Source: Agaribacillus aureus (lineage in GTDB: Bacteria; Bacteroidota; Bacteroidia; Cytophagales; Cyclobacteriaceae). From it: DNA of 64,000 nt. Shown one piece after another: positions 12,928 through 39,284 of the stretch. The stretch lies in contig JAUJEB010000015.1 of the NCBI GenBank assembly GCA_030442055.1, positions 1 through 64,000 of the forward strand, read 5' to 3'. Each line of letters starts with the position of its first letter. The stretch's first letter is position 1. The position numbers were made by a program, and so were the translations under genes. The notes beneath the pieces were generated by a model. The model was not told the DNA's origin and searched no databases. It worked only from the letters and a program-made list of their open reading frames with translations.

Positions 12928-13137
12928 ATGGCTAAAAAAGCAATAAATAGACTTAAGGTTGTCTTGGTGGAACAAGGCAGAACCAATAAATGGTTAGCCG
13001 AGAAATTAGATAAGAACACTGCCACTGTTTCTAGATGGTGTACCAATGAGATGCAACCTTCAATAGAAACACTAGTGGAAATTGCGAATGCTTTAAACGT
13101 TAATGTTAGAGACCTACTTGTTTCAACTAAAGATTAA
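12928..13137 (+). CDS. Xre-family HTH regulator
   Basis: A 69-aa protein made almost entirely of one HTH_3 domain: LKVVLVEQGRTNKWLAEKL, KNTATVSRWCTN as the recognition helix, then PSIETLVEIANALNVNVRDLL. It is the first gene of the AT-rich island and lies 5 bp before the four-helix membrane protein gene. Such small Xre proteins commonly repress the defence operon they open. No other domain is present. Confidence 0.85.
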   Translation: MAKKAINRLKVVLVEQGRTNKWLAEKLDKNTATVSRWCTNEMQPSIETLVEIANALNVNVRDLLVSTKD

Positions 13138-13142
13138 GAAGT

Positions 13143-13565
13143 ATGAAGCATTTGGAGATAATACTGCCACTAACAATATTAGTACTAGCATTCGTATTGA
13201 AGCTTGCAATAGATAGAAATGTTGAAGTCCCTAATCTAATACAGGCAATGTGTGAACTGCCTGTCGACATAATATTTTTATCCATTTCTTTTCTAATTGC
13301 ATTCACTATTTCCAAGCCAAAAGACCCTAGCGAAGGATTGTTTTATACAATAGCCTTTATAGTACTTGCGGTTGTTATTGTCATCTTATGGAGAAAGAGC
13401 TTAAAACTGTTTGAAACTAAAAATCGCCTATGGATTCTCCTACTATTTATAAATATGTCCATTTCGGTATTCTCGCTCCATCAATCTGTAGGTATTTTGT
13501 TACGAACTGAGAATTCAGCTCAAATAGAAAGTGTTGAACCCAAAACTGAGAAAGATGGACATTAA
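13143..13565 (+). CDS. Four-helix membrane protein of the defence island
   Basis: A 140-aa protein with four hydrophobic segments, at about residues 5-22, 40-57, 65-83 and 95-113, and a polar C-terminal tail (about 120-140). No family is recognised. It overlaps the TIR-like gene by 11 bp, so the two are probably translated together. Small multi-pass proteins paired with nucleotide-signalling or NAD-consuming partners in defence loci often form pores or anchor complexes; that role here is inference. Confidence 0.75.
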   Translation: MKHLEIILPLTILVLAFVLKLAIDRNVEVPNLIQAMCELPVDIIFLSISFLIAFTISKPKDPSEGLFYTIAFIVLAVVIVILWRKSLKLFETKNRLWILLLFINMSISVFSLHQSVGILLRTENSAQIESVEPKTEKDGH

Positions 13566-14262
13566 CATTATAACCATTGTCATTACCGCTATAACGAGCA
13601 TCTCAGTTAGTCTTACTGCCTTTATCTTATCCATAAATCTTAAGAAAAAAAGGTATGATAAAGAAAATAGCAGGGCATTGCTAGAGAGTATGAGAAAGTC
13701 CCTAGAACAAAAGATGTATGTTTTAAATGACAGGCTTGTACAAAATGAGGAAAGATGGCGCGATGTAAATCATCTACTACTGACCAAAGAGTATCTTGAA
13801 AATGAAAATTTGATAAAAGAGAATAACAAAACCTATTATTCAGGATTTCTTAAGGACAATGGAATTTCTGAAAACGATTTGAACATGGATAATCGTATGG
13901 TATTCGTCTTAACGCCCTTTAACGATAGGTTTTATAATGAATTCATGACAATTAAAGCCACTTGTGAAGATGCAGGGTTTAAGTGCTTTAGAGGAGATGA
14001 AAAGGAATTTAAAGGAGATATCTTTCCCGAAATGCTCAGATACATTGCAAAAGCCAGAATTATCATAGCAAATATCAATGGAAGAAATCCAAATGTGTTG
14101 TATGAATTAGGAGTAGCACAGGCAATGGATAAATCAGTAATTCTAGTTTCAAAAGAACCCAAAGACTTACCTATTGATATTCAGTCGCAAAGATTCCTTA
14201 TCTATTCAGATTCAGACTCACTAAGAGAGTCATTAAAAGTCGAACTAGAAAAATTGATATAA
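13555..14262 (+). CDS. Membrane-anchored TIR/deoxyribosyltransferase-like protein
   Basis: A 235-aa protein. One N-terminal helix (MDINIITIVITAITSISVSL) is followed by a charged coiled-coil stretch (about 30-90) and a C-terminal Rossmann-like domain (about 110-235). That domain carries MVFVLTPFNDRFYNEF, KARIIIANINGRNPNVLYELG and VAQAMDKSVILVS. The NPNVxYELGxAxAxxK signature belongs to nucleoside 2-deoxyribosyltransferase-like and TIR-like proteins, which cleave N-glycosidic bonds, often NAD+, in immunity. The Glu of YELG is the expected catalytic residue. I choose the ATG at 13555; an in-frame start at 13531 would enlarge the overlap with the upstream gene. The NTPase gene starts 7 bp downstream. 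Confidence 0.82.
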   Translation: MDINIITIVITAITSISVSLTAFILSINLKKKRYDKENSRALLESMRKSLEQKMYVLNDRLVQNEERWRDVNHLLLTKEYLENENLIKENNKTYYSGFLKDNGISENDLNMDNRMVFVLTPFNDRFYNEFMTIKATCEDAGFKCFRGDEKEFKGDIFPEMLRYIAKARIIIANINGRNPNVLYELGVAQAMDKSVILVSKEPKDLPIDIQSQRFLIYSDSDSLRESLKVELEKLI

Positions 14263-14269
14263 TTCATAA

Positions 14270-17200
14270 ATGAGTAGGTTACAGGCCATAGAAAATGCAC
14301 TCTCTGCCATTAATGAAACAGTCTTTCAAGAACTATGTGATAGTTTCCTTGCCTTAAGAAATACAAATTATTCAGCATTATCACGGGTTGGAAGTCAAAG
14401 TGGAAAACAAAAAAGTACTAAAGGAACTCCTGATACTTTCCTCTTACTACCAAGCGGTAAATACATTTTTGTTGAGCATTCCACCAATATTTCAGCAGGT
14501 TTATCAAAGTTAAAAGATGATATCGACAAGTGTCTTGATTCAGAAAAGACAGGTATTCCTTTAAGTCAAATTGCGGAAATTATTCTTTGTATAAATTTCA
14601 ATTTAAAGTCTAATGAGACACAAGAATTAGTTAGCCTCTTAAAAGACACAAGAATTGTACTCACCATTTATACCCTTGATTCTCTTTCCATTGAATTACA
14701 TTTAAATCATAGAGATTTAACCCATCAATATTTAGAGCTGCCTTTAGACACCGGCCAAATCGTTTCAATAGAAAAATTCATCGATGAATATAATAGGGCT
14801 TCTGGGGGAATCTCCACTCCAATCGACAATACTTTTTTGTATAGAGAACAGGAAATTAAGGAGCTAAAAGAAGGAATTCACTCCAACGACTTCATTATTT
14901 TAACCGGTGCCCCAGGAGTGGGAAAAACTAAATTGGCGCTAGAAGGAATTAAGTCATTTCTTACTGAAAATTTAGAGTTTGGAGCTTACTGTGTTTCTTA
15001 TAAGAGTCATACATTGTTGGATGACTTGTTTCAATATTTAAGTTCAGATAAAGACTACATTCTTTTTGTAGATGACGCGAATAGAATAGACGCTTTCAAT
15101 CAAATCACAGGTTTCTACAAAGCATCAAGAATGGGCAAACTAAAAGTAATCATTACTGTGCGGGATTACGCTTTTCAGGAAATAGGCATTTTGTGTCAAG
15201 AGTTTGCACCCAAGCGAATGGATATAGTTAAATTCACGGATGAACAAATAATAAAAATTGTAAGTGCAGAACCTTTTAAGACCAATCAATATTATCATAG
15301 ACAGATAACTCATATTGCCGACGGAAATCCAAGAATTGCCATTATGTCTGCACTTTTGGCAAATGAGAAAATGGACATTTATGCCTTAAATGATGTTTCA
15401 GACCTATTTGAAAAATATTTTTCAGCTTTTGTAAAAGATAAAGGAGAATTTGCCAAGAACTTAAATATTAAATGCCTTGGGTTAATTGCATTTTTCTATA
15501 CCATCCCATACAAGAACAAAGAAATAGTTAGTTCAATACTGGCTCACTTTGAAATCAACTACCCATCTTTTATTGACGTAATAGATAAGTTGGATAAATT
15601 GGAGCTAGTAGAAATTCAATTTGAGCACGTTAAAATCCCCGAGCAGAACCTTTCAACATATTTTTTCTACAAAGCGTTTATTAAGGATCGCCTGCTTTCA
15701 TTTGAGACATTACTCAGAAATTATTATGAAAGTAATAAAGATCGCTTCAAGGATTGTGTTTTCCCTGCAAACAACACCTTCGGAGCCAAGAATGTAATGG
15801 ATAAACTCCAACCTTTCTTAAGGAACTATTGGAAATTTGTTCAGAATGATGAAGAAAAAGGATTCAATTTTTTATCCACTTTTTGGCTCTATCTTTCTGA
15901 CGAAACCTTCGAATTTATATACAACCTAGTTGAAAAACTTCCGGAAAGCAATTCTGAAAATTATGAAGTAGCTTATGAAAATAATGCCTTTTCGTATAAT
16001 AGAAATAACATAATAGACCTAATTGAAAATTTTTTCAGGTTTCAAAAAAAAGAATTAAAAGATGCTATTCAATTAGCATTTGAATATGTCCGAAAAAAGC
16101 CAGAAAATTTACCCGAATTGATTTATGCAATTCGTGGGAATTTGATATTCGATGAGGATGATGAACCCCATAGGTTCGAGAGACAGTCAAATCTATTTAA
16201 GATCTTATTGGATGGCTTACATAAAAAAAATACTCTTTATACCAAGGCGTTTTATGAACTTTCAAAAACATTCCTGAAATATCAACACGATCATACAAAA
16301 GTTGGAAGGCATCATTCCTTTTATATGTATCAATACCAATTGCCAAATAATCAATTTATTCAAAAGTTCAGAGCTAATATTTGGAATGCGGTTAATGAAA
16401 ATTATTCTACCTATCCAGATGAATCTTTTAGTTTATTAGAAGACTATGGTGCAAATCCAGATGTTATTGAAGGAATAATGGAATTTGATATTCCGTTCGT
16501 ACTGGACATAATCGAAAATCATTTCACAATTGAATCTTTTGATCATTGTAAATATGTGCAAGACCAAGTTCGGTGGTTTAAAAGAAATTCCATGTCTCAT
16601 CCATCCTTTGAATCATTAATTCATTCATTCAGGAACTCTACTTATGAAACCTATCTAAAAATAGATTGGGACAGACTTCGGGATAGGGAGCAATATGAAT
16701 TTGAAGATTACAGGGAATATGAACGGCTAAAAGAGGAAGAAATAAGAACTTCATTTGTTCTAAAAAATGGAGAAGAAGTCGACGATTTCCTTAAAGCGTT
16801 TTTCTTTTTAAAAGAGAAAGCAAAAAACGAATGGAATTATAATAACTCATTAGATTTTGTAGTTGATGAAAATTACAAACATAATCCAAAAATAGGTTTA
16901 GTTTTACTTTCAAAGATTACTGAAGAAGACAACAAACTCAACTATATACCAAGAGCTATATTCCGGAATCACTTGAAAACAGACGTCGCAGCAAAAGAAA
17001 TTTGGTTGGTGCTACAGAAGAGAGATTTTAACTTAAAGCCTCATTGGGAACTTTCATTTTATGATTATTTGGACGAGGTTTTATTAGATAAAAAATACGT
17101 GTCTACCCTGATTGATACTATCAGCAGTATGCAAGGTTCAAGCACAATTCATTTTCATCGATTGCAACGTTTCTTATCTGTAGAGCCCAATCTGTTCAAA

Positions 17201-17986
17201 ATAATTTTGAGGAAGATAGTTGAAAGGAATGATAAAGGAGCTAAGTTGAGGGTTTGGATGGACTTTTTCAGCACTCATTTTGTAAACTTGGGGAATGATG
17301 TTGACCTTATCAAAAAAGCATATATCCAACAAAACAGAATTCAAAATCATTTTGACAATGAAGGTAAAGGGTTGCTCAATATTTTGAAGAAAGCTCCACA
17401 ATTCTTAATAGAATATATAGATAATTTGTTATCAGATGGACATAGGCGCGTTGGAGGCAACAGAAGATTAGGCTTTATATGGAAGGTAGCCGATATCGAG
17501 TCGACTCTTGTTGATGTCTTTGAATTGGTGATCAAGAAAAAACCTTATTTTGGAATACTTGATCATTTTTGCAACTCGTTCTTTCGCAATATACCAGAAG
17601 GTTTAGACAAGAAAGCGAAAGAATTTCTAATTGAATATGTTAAGCAGAATCACAATGATCATGAGAAAATGAATGTGATAGTTGATATTGCTCGACATTC
17701 AATGAAAGATATTTTTGACGATATATTACTGCTATTTGTTTCTTTAAATCAAGATGTTGAAGTTTTCTCTAAAATTTGGTGGAGGGGTAATGGGGGCTCA
17801 TATTCGGGAGATGTGATAATAGGAGATATGGAAGCTGCCGATTGGAGAAATATTTTGTCCATAGTTGAGAAATCAGATATTGGAATAAAATTGATTCCTA
17901 TAAAAACGTTTATAAATGAAAAAGTACAAAGTGCATTGAGAAGGGGGGATTGGGAGCGAAAGAGAAGGTTTTTAGAACGATACTAA
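14270..17986 (+). CDS. Large STAND-type P-loop NTPase with nuclease-like N-terminus (1,238 aa)
   Basis: Residues about 1-180 resemble a restriction-endonuclease-like fold, with KGTPDTFLLLPSGKYIFVEHST giving D55 and E69 as possible catalytic acids; the usual Lys after E is replaced by S71. The STAND module follows: Walker A GAPGVGKT at 213-220, Walker B YILFVDDANRID at about 264-275 and a KVIITVRDYAFQE sensor segment. The module resembles novel STAND NTPase 3. The C-terminal 750 residues are helical and repeat-like, the usual place for ligand sensing. Defence STANDs (Avs-type) sense phage proteins and activate an N-terminal effector. It is the last gene of the island operon. AT content and codon use differ from the flanking chromosomal genes. 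Confidence 0.83.
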   Translation: MSRLQAIENALSAINETVFQELCDSFLALRNTNYSALSRVGSQSGKQKSTKGTPDTFLLLPSGKYIFVEHSTNISAGLSKLKDDIDKCLDSEKTGIPLSQIAEIILCINFNLKSNETQELVSLLKDTRIVLTIYTLDSLSIELHLNHRDLTHQYLELPLDTGQIVSIEKFIDEYNRASGGISTPIDNTFLYREQEIKELKEGIHSNDFIILTGAPGVGKTKLALEGIKSFLTENLEFGAYCVSYKSHTLLDDLFQYLSSDKDYILFVDDANRIDAFNQITGFYKASRMGKLKVIITVRDYAFQEIGILCQEFAPKRMDIVKFTDEQIIKIVSAEPFKTNQYYHRQITHIADGNPRIAIMSALLANEKMDIYALNDVSDLFEKYFSAFVKDKGEFAKNLNIKCLGLIAFFYTIPYKNKEIVSSILAHFEINYPSFIDVIDKLDKLELVEIQFEHVKIPEQNLSTYFFYKAFIKDRLLSFETLLRNYYESNKDRFKDCVFPANNTFGAKNVMDKLQPFLRNYWKFVQNDEEKGFNFLSTFWLYLSDETFEFIYNLVEKLPESNSENYEVAYENNAFSYNRNNIIDLIENFFRFQKKELKDAIQLAFEYVRKKPENLPELIYAIRGNLIFDEDDEPHRFERQSNLFKILLDGLHKKNTLYTKAFYELSKTFLKYQHDHTKVGRHHSFYMYQYQLPNNQFIQKFRANIWNAVNENYSTYPDESFSLLEDYGANPDVIEGIMEFDIPFVLDIIENHFTIESFDHCKYVQDQVRWFKRNSMSHPSFESLIHSFRNSTYETYLKIDWDRLRDREQYEFEDYREYERLKEEEIRTSFVLKNGEEVDDFLKAFFFLKEKAKNEWNYNNSLDFVVDENYKHNPKIGLVLLSKITEEDNKLNYIPRAIFRNHLKTDVAAKEIWLVLQKRDFNLKPHWELSFYDYLDEVLLDKKYVSTLIDTISSMQGSSTIHFHRLQRFLSVEPNLFKIILRKIVERNDKGAKLRVWMDFFSTHFVNLGNDVDLIKKAYIQQNRIQNHFDNEGKGLLNILKKAPQFLIEYIDNLLSDGHRRVGGNRRLGFIWKVADIESTLVDVFELVIKKKPYFGILDHFCNSFFRNIPEGLDKKAKEFLIEYVKQNHNDHEKMNVIVDIARHSMKDIFDDILLLFVSLNQDVEVFSKIWWRGNGGSYSGDVIIGDMEAADWRNILSIVEKSDIGIKLIPIKTFINEKVQSALRRGDWERKRRFLERY

Positions 17987-37024: not shown

Positions 37025-38692
37025 TTATGGTGTTTTTCTGCCATCGGTCAAAACTGCCGGCTCGGGAATTAATTCCGTTTCTTCCACACGTATTTGTTTG
37101 GTATTCCCAACTTTCTTTGCTAATACTTGTTCCGGAATTTTCAAAACCCATAATGCTACAACCAGGGCGATCAGGCCGGTGAGTAACCAACTTATATCAA
37201 CCCCTGCCACGTTTGGAAAGGTGGTCAAAACAAGCCAGAACCAATCTCCGGTAGCGATACCATTTACCAATGGCACCAGCAGGGAAAGCACCCCACCGAT
37301 AATCAGGTAATTTTTGTTTTGCCGGGCATAGCTATTCCAGAAACAACCTATGACAAAAAGCAGGAGCCAACTTGAAAAAAAGATCGTATTGACCAGGAAT
37401 GCCCGACCTTCCATACCGATTGGTACCATTTTATTTGCTATGAAGATGATGGCAAAGGCCGGGAACATACTCAGACAAATGGCCAGGTATACTTTAGTTA
37501 CCTTGTGATGGAATTTCCGTTGCTTCTCTGTGTATCTGTTGTTATCCCGTGCTGCCTGCCAAAGCAGTATGCCGCTTATAATCATAAAACAGGTGATCAT
37601 AGACAAAACAAAATACACGACCCTGATGAGGAATCCTCCAAAATCTGCAAAATGGAGCTTGCCGATAATCTCAATAACCGAGGAATAGTATTTCTTCTCG
37701 GCAGGAAATAAGCTTGCTTCTTCAATAGGGATACCGTCTGACATGTACATGGTGATGCGGCCATCTGTGGCTATCCCTTTACCGTCTTTTATCGTCCAGG
37801 TAATCAGGGCATCTTCCAGACCGTAATTTCTTACCGCAGCCCTGGTAACGCGATAACCGGGATAGGTCTCCTCGATCTTTTTTTTCAAGGTGACCATGGA
37901 AATGTTATCGGCAGGTTTAGCATCGTGTTCCAATTCAATGGCGTTTTCAGGCCTGAGGATATTGAAGACTTTGGACGAGTCTCCCCCATATAATATTAAT
38001 ACGCTGGGTAGTAGTACGAAACTAAGCAATCCAAAAAAAGCGCCGGTGACGGCGTATACGATTTGAAACGGAAGTCCAATGACTCCCAGTACGGTATGTG
38101 CGTTTGTCCATATCTGCTTCCATTTGCCTTGTACAATAAAAGCATAGAATTTGGTAAGCAGGTTTCTCCAGTGAATGAGCAGACCGGTAATCGAGGCAAA
38201 GAGGAAAAACAAAGCCACAAATCCTGATAAATAAAGGCCGATAACTGGTATTTGTCTAAAATAATGTAACCTAAAAAGCGTAATTCCTACTGTCGTTAAG
38301 GGCTTTGTGATGTCTTGTACCGAGTAACTCCCAGGCTCGACATAGGCGGCCATGCGTTCCGTGGTACTATCTGTATCATGGACTGCACCGTAAACCTGAA
38401 AAAAAGGATCGTGATGATCCGGAAAAGCAATATTTGTAATAGAATGCCGATCCAGATCATATACCTTATCTACCGCTTCGAACGCTTTGTCGTAATCGAA
38501 ATCCTCTGCCACCGGTATCCTGGCAGCTGGGTTTTCCCACTGATAAAAGTCATCCCTAAATAAGGTAAATGCCCCTGCATAAAAAATCACAAAAAGTGCA
38601 AAGCTAATTACAATGCCTGCTACAGTATGCGTGTGAAATAACACATTATACGCCCGGTTGCCTAAGCCCTTAAGTTTCATAACAGAAGACAT
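37025..38692 (-). CDS. PepSY-associated transmembrane protein (555 aa)
   Basis: An inner-membrane protein of the PepSY_TM family. It has an N-terminal helix (TVAGIVISFALFVIFYAGAF), a periplasmic domain with PepSY features (LKKKIEETYPGYRVTRAAVR), and further helices with conserved His (LHYFRQIP, LIHWRNLL, NAHTVLGVIGLPF, KLHFADFGGFLIRV). Members are thought to reduce Fe3+-siderophores with bound haem. It is the last gene of the operon that starts at 40697; its ATG is next to the stop of the small membrane gene at 38693. Confidence 0.85.
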   Translation of the reverse strand: MSSVMKLKGLGNRAYNVLFHTHTVAGIVISFALFVIFYAGAFTLFRDDFYQWENPAARIPVAEDFDYDKAFEAVDKVYDLDRHSITNIAFPDHHDPFFQVYGAVHDTDSTTERMAAYVEPGSYSVQDITKPLTTVGITLFRLHYFRQIPVIGLYLSGFVALFFLFASITGLLIHWRNLLTKFYAFIVQGKWKQIWTNAHTVLGVIGLPFQIVYAVTGAFFGLLSFVLLPSVLILYGGDSSKVFNILRPENAIELEHDAKPADNISMVTLKKKIEETYPGYRVTRAAVRNYGLEDALITWTIKDGKGIATDGRITMYMSDGIPIEEASLFPAEKKYYSSVIEIIGKLHFADFGGFLIRVVYFVLSMITCFMIISGILLWQAARDNNRYTEKQRKFHHKVTKVYLAICLSMFPAFAIIFIANKMVPIGMEGRAFLVNTIFFSSWLLLFVIGCFWNSYARQNKNYLIIGGVLSLLVPLVNGIATGDWFWLVLTTFPNVAGVDISWLLTGLIALVVALWVLKIPEQVLAKKVGNTKQIRVEETELIPEPAVLTDGRKTP

Positions 38693-38968
38693 TTAGATGA
38701 AAATAATGATTGAACAGACCGTGGCAATAGAGCCGAAAAGGCTCCAGACATGCCACGCTTTTCTCATAAAAAAAGCGATTACCATAAAAAACACCCAAAG
38801 AAGATAGGTGCTGTATGCCGTAGTCATGATGACAGAAGGGTTGTTCTTGATAAGTGTTCCCAGGGCGATATTTATAAGCATAGTTACCACATAACTACCT
38901 AATATAGCCGCTGTTACTTTTGATACCCTCGTCCAGGTTCCTGAGAGATATTGTGATTTTGCAGGCAT
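38693..38968 (-). CDS. Small membrane protein, DUF3649-like
   Basis: About 91 aa from MPAKSQYLSGTWTRVSKVTAAILG; three hydrophobic helices follow. The position between PepSY genes and the AILGSYVVTMLINIAL pattern match the DUF3649-type iron-uptake membrane proteins of siderophore loci. I chose the ATG at 38968 because it leaves a 1-bp gap to the preceding gene, while a start at 38983 would overlap it by 14 bp. Confidence 0.7.
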   Translation of the reverse strand: MPAKSQYLSGTWTRVSKVTAAILGSYVVTMLINIALGTLIKNNPSVIMTTAYSTYLLWVFFMVIAFFMRKAWHVWSLFGSIATVCSIIIFI

Positions 38969-38969
38969 A

Positions 38970-39284
38970 TTAAATAAAATCATAAATTAAGGATCCAGCC
39001 ACCAATAACCCCCAAAACACAAGCCAATTGGGATGTGTTTTGACAGATAGTACCAAGGCGCTGAGAACCGTCATAAGGACCACCGCCCAAACAATTATAG
39101 CTGTAGGTGTATCGTACATCGACGTAAATGACCATACAGACCAACCGAGAAAAAGAATACTAACCAATAATACCAGCTTTCTGTTTTTTCTTAAAGGAAT
39201 GCCTATCGTCGCCAGACCTTCCGGGAAATATTTAGATGTCCCGTAAAGCAAAAGACAGGCAATAATTGTTGTAGTAATGGCCAT
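38970..39284 (-). CDS. Small membrane protein, DUF3325-like
   Basis: A 104-aa protein with three to four helices and a KNRK turn after the first helix, like DUF3325 proteins. It sits between a PepSY gene and the DUF3649-like gene, the order commonly seen in siderophore-reduction operons. The exact role is unknown; it may stabilise the reductase complex. Confidence 0.7.
   Translation of the reverse strand: MAITTTIIACLLLYGTSKYFPEGLATIGIPLRKNRKLVLLVSILFLGWSVWSFTSMYDTPTAIIVWAVVLMTVLSALVLSVKTHPNWLVFWGLLVAGSLIYDFI

What the first reader, a model, noticed from the sequence alone, without database searches (positions are those of the whole stretch)
12928..17986. Candidate defence operon: Xre, 4-helix protein, TIR-like protein, STAND NTPase
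Four tightly packed genes with AT-rich composition unlike the flanks. Each resembles a piece of known immune systems, but I do not recognise the combination of a small four-helix protein and a membrane-anchored deoxyribosyltransferase-like protein with a nuclease-type STAND.
Basis: inference. Interest (0 to 1): 0.75.

Follow-up and report, generated by a model that had tools for sequence, protein, structure and literature searches.

The report
Membrane TIR-like pair beside STAND nuclease
Four packed genes in an unnamed bacterial genome look like two phage-defence modules placed side by side: a two-gene membrane unit with an NAD-cutting-type enzyme that phages also carry, and a nuclease sensor resembling Avs4; neither has been tested.

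Summary
In detail: four tightly packed ORFs at 12928-17986, 33% GC against 43% outside. They are an Xre-type repressor (p1), a protein with four hydrophobic segments (p2), a membrane-anchored TIR/deoxyribosyltransferase-fold enzyme with a conserved catalytic-type Glu (p3), and a 1238-aa nSTAND3 protein (p4) whose N-terminal domain folds most like the Avs4 nuclease.

This is probably two modules rather than one indivisible system. p2+p3 form a conserved pair in 8 loci, in order and nearly touching; two of the p2 genes were found blind. Four of these loci are viral contigs with phage genes, one with the pair between portal and head protease. p4 has no p2-p3 beside it in 11 of 13 loci (one of the 11 cannot be judged upstream). 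The window and one Bacteroidetes MAG share the order p2-p3-p4 with 6-7 bp between p3 and p4, although the two p4 proteins are only 51% identical. So the link is real but optional. Xre is not conserved with it.

Closest known: the AC1 TIR+TM prophage locus, TIR+SLATT phage pairs, Swarozyc, Avs4. Best mechanism: p3 is a membrane-held NAD/nucleotide glycosidase switched through p2; p4 is an independent nuclease sensor. Function is inferred. New variant of a known kind.

The parts
12928..13137 (+). p1: 69-aa Xre/HTH_3 protein, probable regulator
   Evidence: HTH_3 E 1e-10, above cut-off; not seen next to p2-p3 in the other loci printed
13143..13565 (+). p2: 140-aa protein with four hydrophobic segments, partner of p3
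   Evidence: Hydropathy segments at 5, 39, 65, 98; relatives directly upstream of p3 in 7 other loci, two found blind
13260..13268 (+). p2 P40-x-D42 motif at the start of the second hydrophobic segment
   Evidence: P9, P40 and D42 are the only residues invariant in 8 of 8 p2 rows
13555..14262 (+). p3: 235 aa, N-terminal membrane segment and long helix, then TIR/NDT-fold domain (ORF open from 13531)
   Evidence: AF2 model mean pLDDT 89.8, helix 5-72 then alpha/beta domain 112-235; fold matches
13768..13776 (+). p3 N72-H73-L74 linker motif between long helix and enzyme domain
   Evidence: Invariant in 8 of 8 p3 rows; function unknown
13990..14001 (+). p3 R146-G-D-E149
   Evidence: Invariant in 8 of 8; R146 and D148 invariant in 44 of 44 incl. 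soluble relatives
14092..14106 (+). p3 N180...E184, catalytic-type Glu
   Evidence: N180 and E184 invariant in 44 of 44; E184 aligns with the Glu of YELG in Rcl/DNPH1 in weak profile matches, E 0.16-0.51
14270..17986 (+). p4: 1238-aa STAND NTPase
   Evidence: nSTAND3 E 5.5e-9 in the window, found in 8 of 8 relatives scanned
14276..14737 (+). p4 N-terminal PD-(D/E)xK-type nuclease fold (residues 3-156), Avs4-like
14429..14476 (+). p4 P54-D55 ... E69 candidate active site
   Evidence: D55 and E69 invariant in 13 of 13; the canonical Lys two residues after E69 is Ser/Thr in 13 of 13
14849..15214 (+). p4 nSTAND3 NTPase with Walker A 213-220 and D268-D269
   Evidence: Pfam match residues 194-315; G213, G216, G218, K219, T220, D268, D269 and G352-R355 invariant in 8 of 8
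15707..17983 (+). p4 C-terminal part (from about residue 480), assumed sensor
   Evidence: Position only; no Pfam family matched here; sensor role inferred from Avs proteins

Best explanation
Two anti-phage modules stand end to end, perhaps under one Xre-type repressor. Module A (p2+p3) is a mobile membrane pair that phages also carry. p2 is a four-pass membrane protein; p3 is held beside it by one membrane segment, which continues as a long helix into a TIR/deoxyribosyltransferase-fold domain. Most likely an infection event at or near the membrane changes p2 or the p2-p3 complex, the long helix relays this, and p3 cleaves NAD+ or a related nucleotide at its N-glycosidic bond, stopping the infected cell. 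Module B (p4) is an Avs4-like STAND: its C-terminal part recognises a phage protein, the ATPase oligomerises, and the N-terminal nuclease domain cuts DNA. Shown: gene content, p2-p3 linkage, predicted folds, conserved catalytic-type residues, carriage on viral contigs, and the p2-p3-p4 order in a second genome. Inferred: defence role, substrate, trigger, direction of signalling, oligomerisation, nuclease activity, shared control.
Against: No assay. NAD+ as substrate cannot be read from the fold: deoxynucleotide hydrolases fit p3 slightly better than TIR domains. p2 relatives share only 20-29% identity with the window's p2 in alignment A4 and 3 invariant residues in 8. p4 lacks the canonical ExK Lys, and its model is poorest just there. 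No PADLOC Avs model matched p4. The p2-p3-p4 order in L056 argues that the modules may act together.
Confidence: 0.5

Rival explanations
1. Signal-and-pore: p3 makes an ADP-ribose-type messenger and p2 is the membrane effector that opens in response, as proposed in print for TIR+SLATT phage pairs and for the AC1 locus.
For: Published proposals for similar gene pairs (PMC9503650 and PMC9122126, passages); p2 has four hydrophobic segments and conserved P40-x-D42 in one of them.
Against: p3 is itself anchored in the membrane next to p2, which a freely diffusing messenger would not need (inference); no messenger-binding domain was found in p2.
Confidence: 0.25
2. One three-protein circuit: p4 senses the phage and activates or is activated by p2-p3, so the p2-p3-p4 order is functional.
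For: Same order and p3-p4 gaps of 7 and 6 bp in window and L056, with p4 51% and p3 56% identical; p3 of the two are sisters (95/97) and a p4 clade of the two is not rejected, AU p 0.086.
Against: 2 of 8 p2-p3 loci and 2 of 13 p4 loci are joined; p4's nearest relative, L159 at 65%, has no p2-p3; p4 carries its own effector-type domain.
Confidence: 0.15
3. p2-p3 is a prophage superinfection-exclusion or host-modifying unit without NADase-type killing; the p3 domain acts in nucleotide metabolism or binding.
For: Carriage on phage contigs and the fold shared with metabolic deoxynucleotide enzymes.
Against: Catalytic-type residues kept in 44 of 44 p3-like sequences; joined to a STAND in two genomes.
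Confidence: 0.15
4. Chance neighbours or a toxin-antitoxin unit of Xre with p2-p3; the four genes do not belong together.
For: Xre was not seen next to p2-p3 elsewhere; defence and toxin genes often cluster (general knowledge).
Against: p2-p3 linked in 8 loci and p3-p4 order and spacing repeated in a second genome.
Confidence: 0.05

Closest known systems
AC1 locus of a P2-like coliphage: TIR protein with transmembrane proteins (PMC9122126, passages; the DefenseFinder name Rst_2TM_1TM_TIR is recalled)
   Same: Phage-borne, TIR-type enzyme plus small membrane proteins, shown to protect E. coli C
   Different: Three genes there; here one four-segment protein and an enzyme with its own membrane segment. 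Its sequences were not in hand, so homology was not tested
TIR + SLATT pairs of Firmicute phages (PMC9503650, passages)
   Same: Two genes, TIR-type enzyme and membrane protein, sometimes with an HTH gene
   Different: SLATT is a 2TM domain; p2 has four segments, and no SLATT model reaches its cut-off in p3
Swarozyc (DUF4062 TIR-like NADase; PMC13174449 preprint, passages)
   Same: TIR/NDT-like fold with a conserved Glu
   Different: No DUF4062 match in p3; the passages seen mention no membrane partner
Avs4 (AVAST type 4)
   Different: No sequence match to a PADLOC Avs model or to Avs4 in the PDB sequences; p4 is shorter than the 1534 residues of the 8dgf chain
Avs5 (SIR2 + nSTAND3; PMC12931631, passages)
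   Same: nSTAND3 ATPase
   Different: SIR2 effector there, nuclease-type fold here
DNPH1/Rcl and nucleoside deoxyribosyltransferases
   Same: Same fold and aligned YELG Glu
   Different: Those are stand-alone soluble enzymes (recalled); p3 has a membrane segment and is paired with p2

Membership tests
Avs/AVAST (type 4) | N-terminal nuclease domain of the Avs4 fold | tested here: met
Avs/AVAST (type 4) | STAND NTPase domain | tested here: met
   nSTAND3 in 8 of 8 members; P-loop invariant in 8 of 8
Avs/AVAST (type 4) | Sequence match to a known Avs model | tested here: not met
   PADLOC 2.0.0: mad8, MkoA, PD-Lambda-4_A and IetA only, all domain-level; that the library holds Avs models is recalled
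Avs/AVAST (type 4) | C-terminal sensor that binds a phage portal or terminase | not testable with these tools
   Needs binding or phage assays
TIR + SLATT phage pair | SLATT domain | tested here: not met
   SLATT_4 14.1 bits against a cut-off of 55 in p3; RTasSLATT in 1 of 6 p3 proteins, E 0.0027
Thoeris / CBASS / Pycsar | ThsA effector, or CD-NTase/cyclase gene, among the four genes | tested here: not met
   None in Pfam, PADLOC or NCBIfam scans of the four proteins and two neighbours; a TIR effector model matches p3's domain only
AC1-type TIR + TM system | Homology of all its genes | not tested
Swarozyc | DUF4062 domain | tested here: not met
   Not among the Pfam matches of 6 p3 proteins at E 0.1
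TIR/DrHyd/SLOG class enzyme (p3) | Rossmann-type fold with catalytic Glu | tested here: met
   Fold; E184 in 44 of 44
TIR/DrHyd/SLOG class enzyme (p3) | NAD+ or nucleotide N-glycosidase activity | not testable with these tools
   Needs an enzyme assay

The most novel reading that the evidence does not exclude
p2-p3 is an undescribed phage-borne immune receptor made of two membrane proteins: a minimal four-pass sensor that gates a TIR-like glycosidase through a rigid helix, the bacterial look-alike of a TIR receptor at a membrane. In some Bacteroidota it has been wired to an Avs4-like STAND into one three-protein circuit.
Probability: 0.25. Interest if true: 0.75.

Novelty: new variant of a known kind. 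Interest (0 to 1): 0.5.

Why it matters
If right, a two-gene unit of about 1.1 kb, found on phage contigs of several kinds, combines a membrane protein and a TIR-like enzyme in one complex. That would give a simple case for asking how membrane events switch a TIR-type enzyme. The repeated but optional joining to a STAND nuclease is a natural case of defence modules being combined.

Tried and rejected
Rejected as one named system: no PADLOC match beyond single domains. Rejected that every p3-like protein has a p2: p2 was found for 4 of 89 viral locus ids (some duplicates; one search kept the best 80 of 122). The profile may miss very diverged p2, since only 3 residues are invariant in 8. Against the rule 'this p3 type always has p2': L062 matches p3 from residue 43 on but has no membrane segment and no p2; L172 has an N-terminal hydrophobic stretch and no p2 in the 1.26 kb seen upstream. 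Looked for p2/p3 remnants in 11 solo p4 loci: none credible; one p2 match at E 0.023 lies far from p4 in L159. L160's p4 starts 358 bp into its contig, so its upstream side cannot be judged. Leptospira: 2 of 13 plasmid records were looked at.

Sigma-70-type promoter and terminator scans did not clearly exceed shuffles (22 against 24.6, 4 against 3.2). TAnnTTTG in L001 gave 2 against 4.5 expected. The search for an empty site in G395 found a break but no clean junction. p2 alone found no viral relative, and L061's p3 alone found only itself. tblastn found no record covering 80% of p3 among 50,697 phage records with four p3 queries. Literature: ten searches of the held open-access library listed nothing that I recognised as a 4TM + TM-TIR-like pair; most hits were seen as listings only. 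Subscription papers and current DefenseFinder models were not searched. No fold family is excluded by absence from the lists.

Full report
What is there. The window holds four same-strand ORFs in 5.06 kb with almost no spacing. The block has 33.1% GC against 43.2% in the rest of the window. p1 is an HTH protein, p2 has four hydrophobic segments and no family above cut-off, p3 hits Nuc_deoxyrib_tr weakly, and p4 hits nSTAND3 above its cut-off. PADLOC gives single-domain matches only: a TIR effector model for p3, mad8 and IetA for p4, several HTH proteins for p1, nothing for p2. The genome has 9.4 Mb in 36 contigs and one match to p2. It is unnamed; that it is Bacteroidota is my inference from gene content.

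p2 and p3 are a unit. A search of 395 genomes of the phylum found p3-like domains in 66 (the window's own included), but apart from the window only one full-length relative, in G172 at 39% identity. A p2 relative lies just upstream of it. A scan of genome contigs gave a closer one, 56%, in a Bacteroidetes MAG, L056. Viral contigs gave L058-L061. Two class-level searches of 217 genomes each, which returned the same two hits, added G565, L187. In these 8 loci p2 precedes p3 with a gap of -11 to +5 bp by the starts I used. The p2 profile was built on six of the loci; it found p2 in L061 (E 7.8e-19) and L187 (E 4.4e-17) without having seen them. Of 89 viral locus ids with p3-like domains (some duplicates; one search kept 80 of 122), 4 have p2. 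Cases outside the rule are L062, p3-like from residue 43 on but without membrane segment or p2, and L172, with a hydrophobic N-terminus and no p2 in the 1.26 kb seen.

The unit is carried by phages. Neighbours on the viral contigs are an integrase, small terminase and DnaB-like helicase (L058), a large terminase (L059), an integrase-family recombinase (L060), and portal and head protease on either side of the pair (L061). The pair or block is poorer in GC than its surroundings in 7 of 7 loci measured: window, L056, L049, L058, L059, L060, L061. In L056 the block lies, by eye, beside a site-specific recombinase gene and a conjugation-type ATPase gene.

Are p2-p3 and p4 one system? They are joined in window and L056: 2 of 8 p2-p3 loci and 2 of 13 p4 loci. 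L160, one of the other 11 p4 loci, cannot be judged upstream. Both joined loci show the same order and a p3-p4 gap of 7 and 6 bp. The p4 proteins are 51% identical, so the order has lasted or recurred over long divergence. Window and L056 are sisters for p3 (95/97). For p4 the window is nearest to L159, which has no p2-p3, while a window+L056 clade is not rejected (AU p 0.086). This fits one joining with a later loss, or two joinings; the data do not decide.

Known relatives. Phage AC1 carries a TIR protein with transmembrane proteins; the cloned locus protects E. coli C against lambda, LF82_P8 and P2 (PMC9122126, passages). TIR+SLATT pairs of Firmicute phages, sometimes with an HTH gene, are proposed to act through an ADPr-regulated membrane effector (PMC9503650, passages). 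DUF4062 TIR-like NADases form Swarozyc, which assembles with phage portal (PMC13174449 preprint, passages). nSTAND3 with a SIR2 effector is described for Avs5 (PMC12931631, passages). The pair here works like the first two, but was not shown to be a member of either.

Verdict. It is best described as a membrane TIR-like pair, also carried by phages, joined to an Avs4-like STAND, with a regulator not seen with it elsewhere. Defence is likely from kin and context but untested.

Noticed in passing
window 12158-39284; L170 (G395): In the same-genus genome G395 the DNA similarity ends near window 12158, and by eye its next genes (PepSY-type) correspond to window 37025-39284, so about 25 kb around the block is rearranged or inserted.
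   Followed up: partly
L147:707-5506: A full-length p4 relative (52%) sits on a viral contig beside head genes, with an Xre-type gene and an ORF6N-like gene (by eye) upstream.
   Followed up: partly
L011, L012 and 11 other plasmid records: Full-length p4 relatives (40-42%) on 13 Leptospira plasmid records; some rows are split in pieces with an IS3-type transposase under the match.
   Followed up: partly
L180:3608-5438: Two tandem p3-like soluble genes with the same N-terminus, next to a DUF1778-GNAT pair, on an Acidithiobacillus caldus plasmid.
   Followed up: no
L015:5277-9069: A p4 relative encoded as two overlapping ORFs, one with nuclease and ATPase, one with the C-terminal part.
   Followed up: no
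L182:2836-4456: Two p3-like soluble genes directly follow a dcm, very-short-patch and type II restriction gene cluster on a Sphingorhabdus plasmid.
   Followed up: no
viral loci L058-L146: Soluble TIR/NDT-like proteins with an NPNVFYELG-type motif are common on viral contigs and match PHROG families of unknown function.
   Followed up: partly
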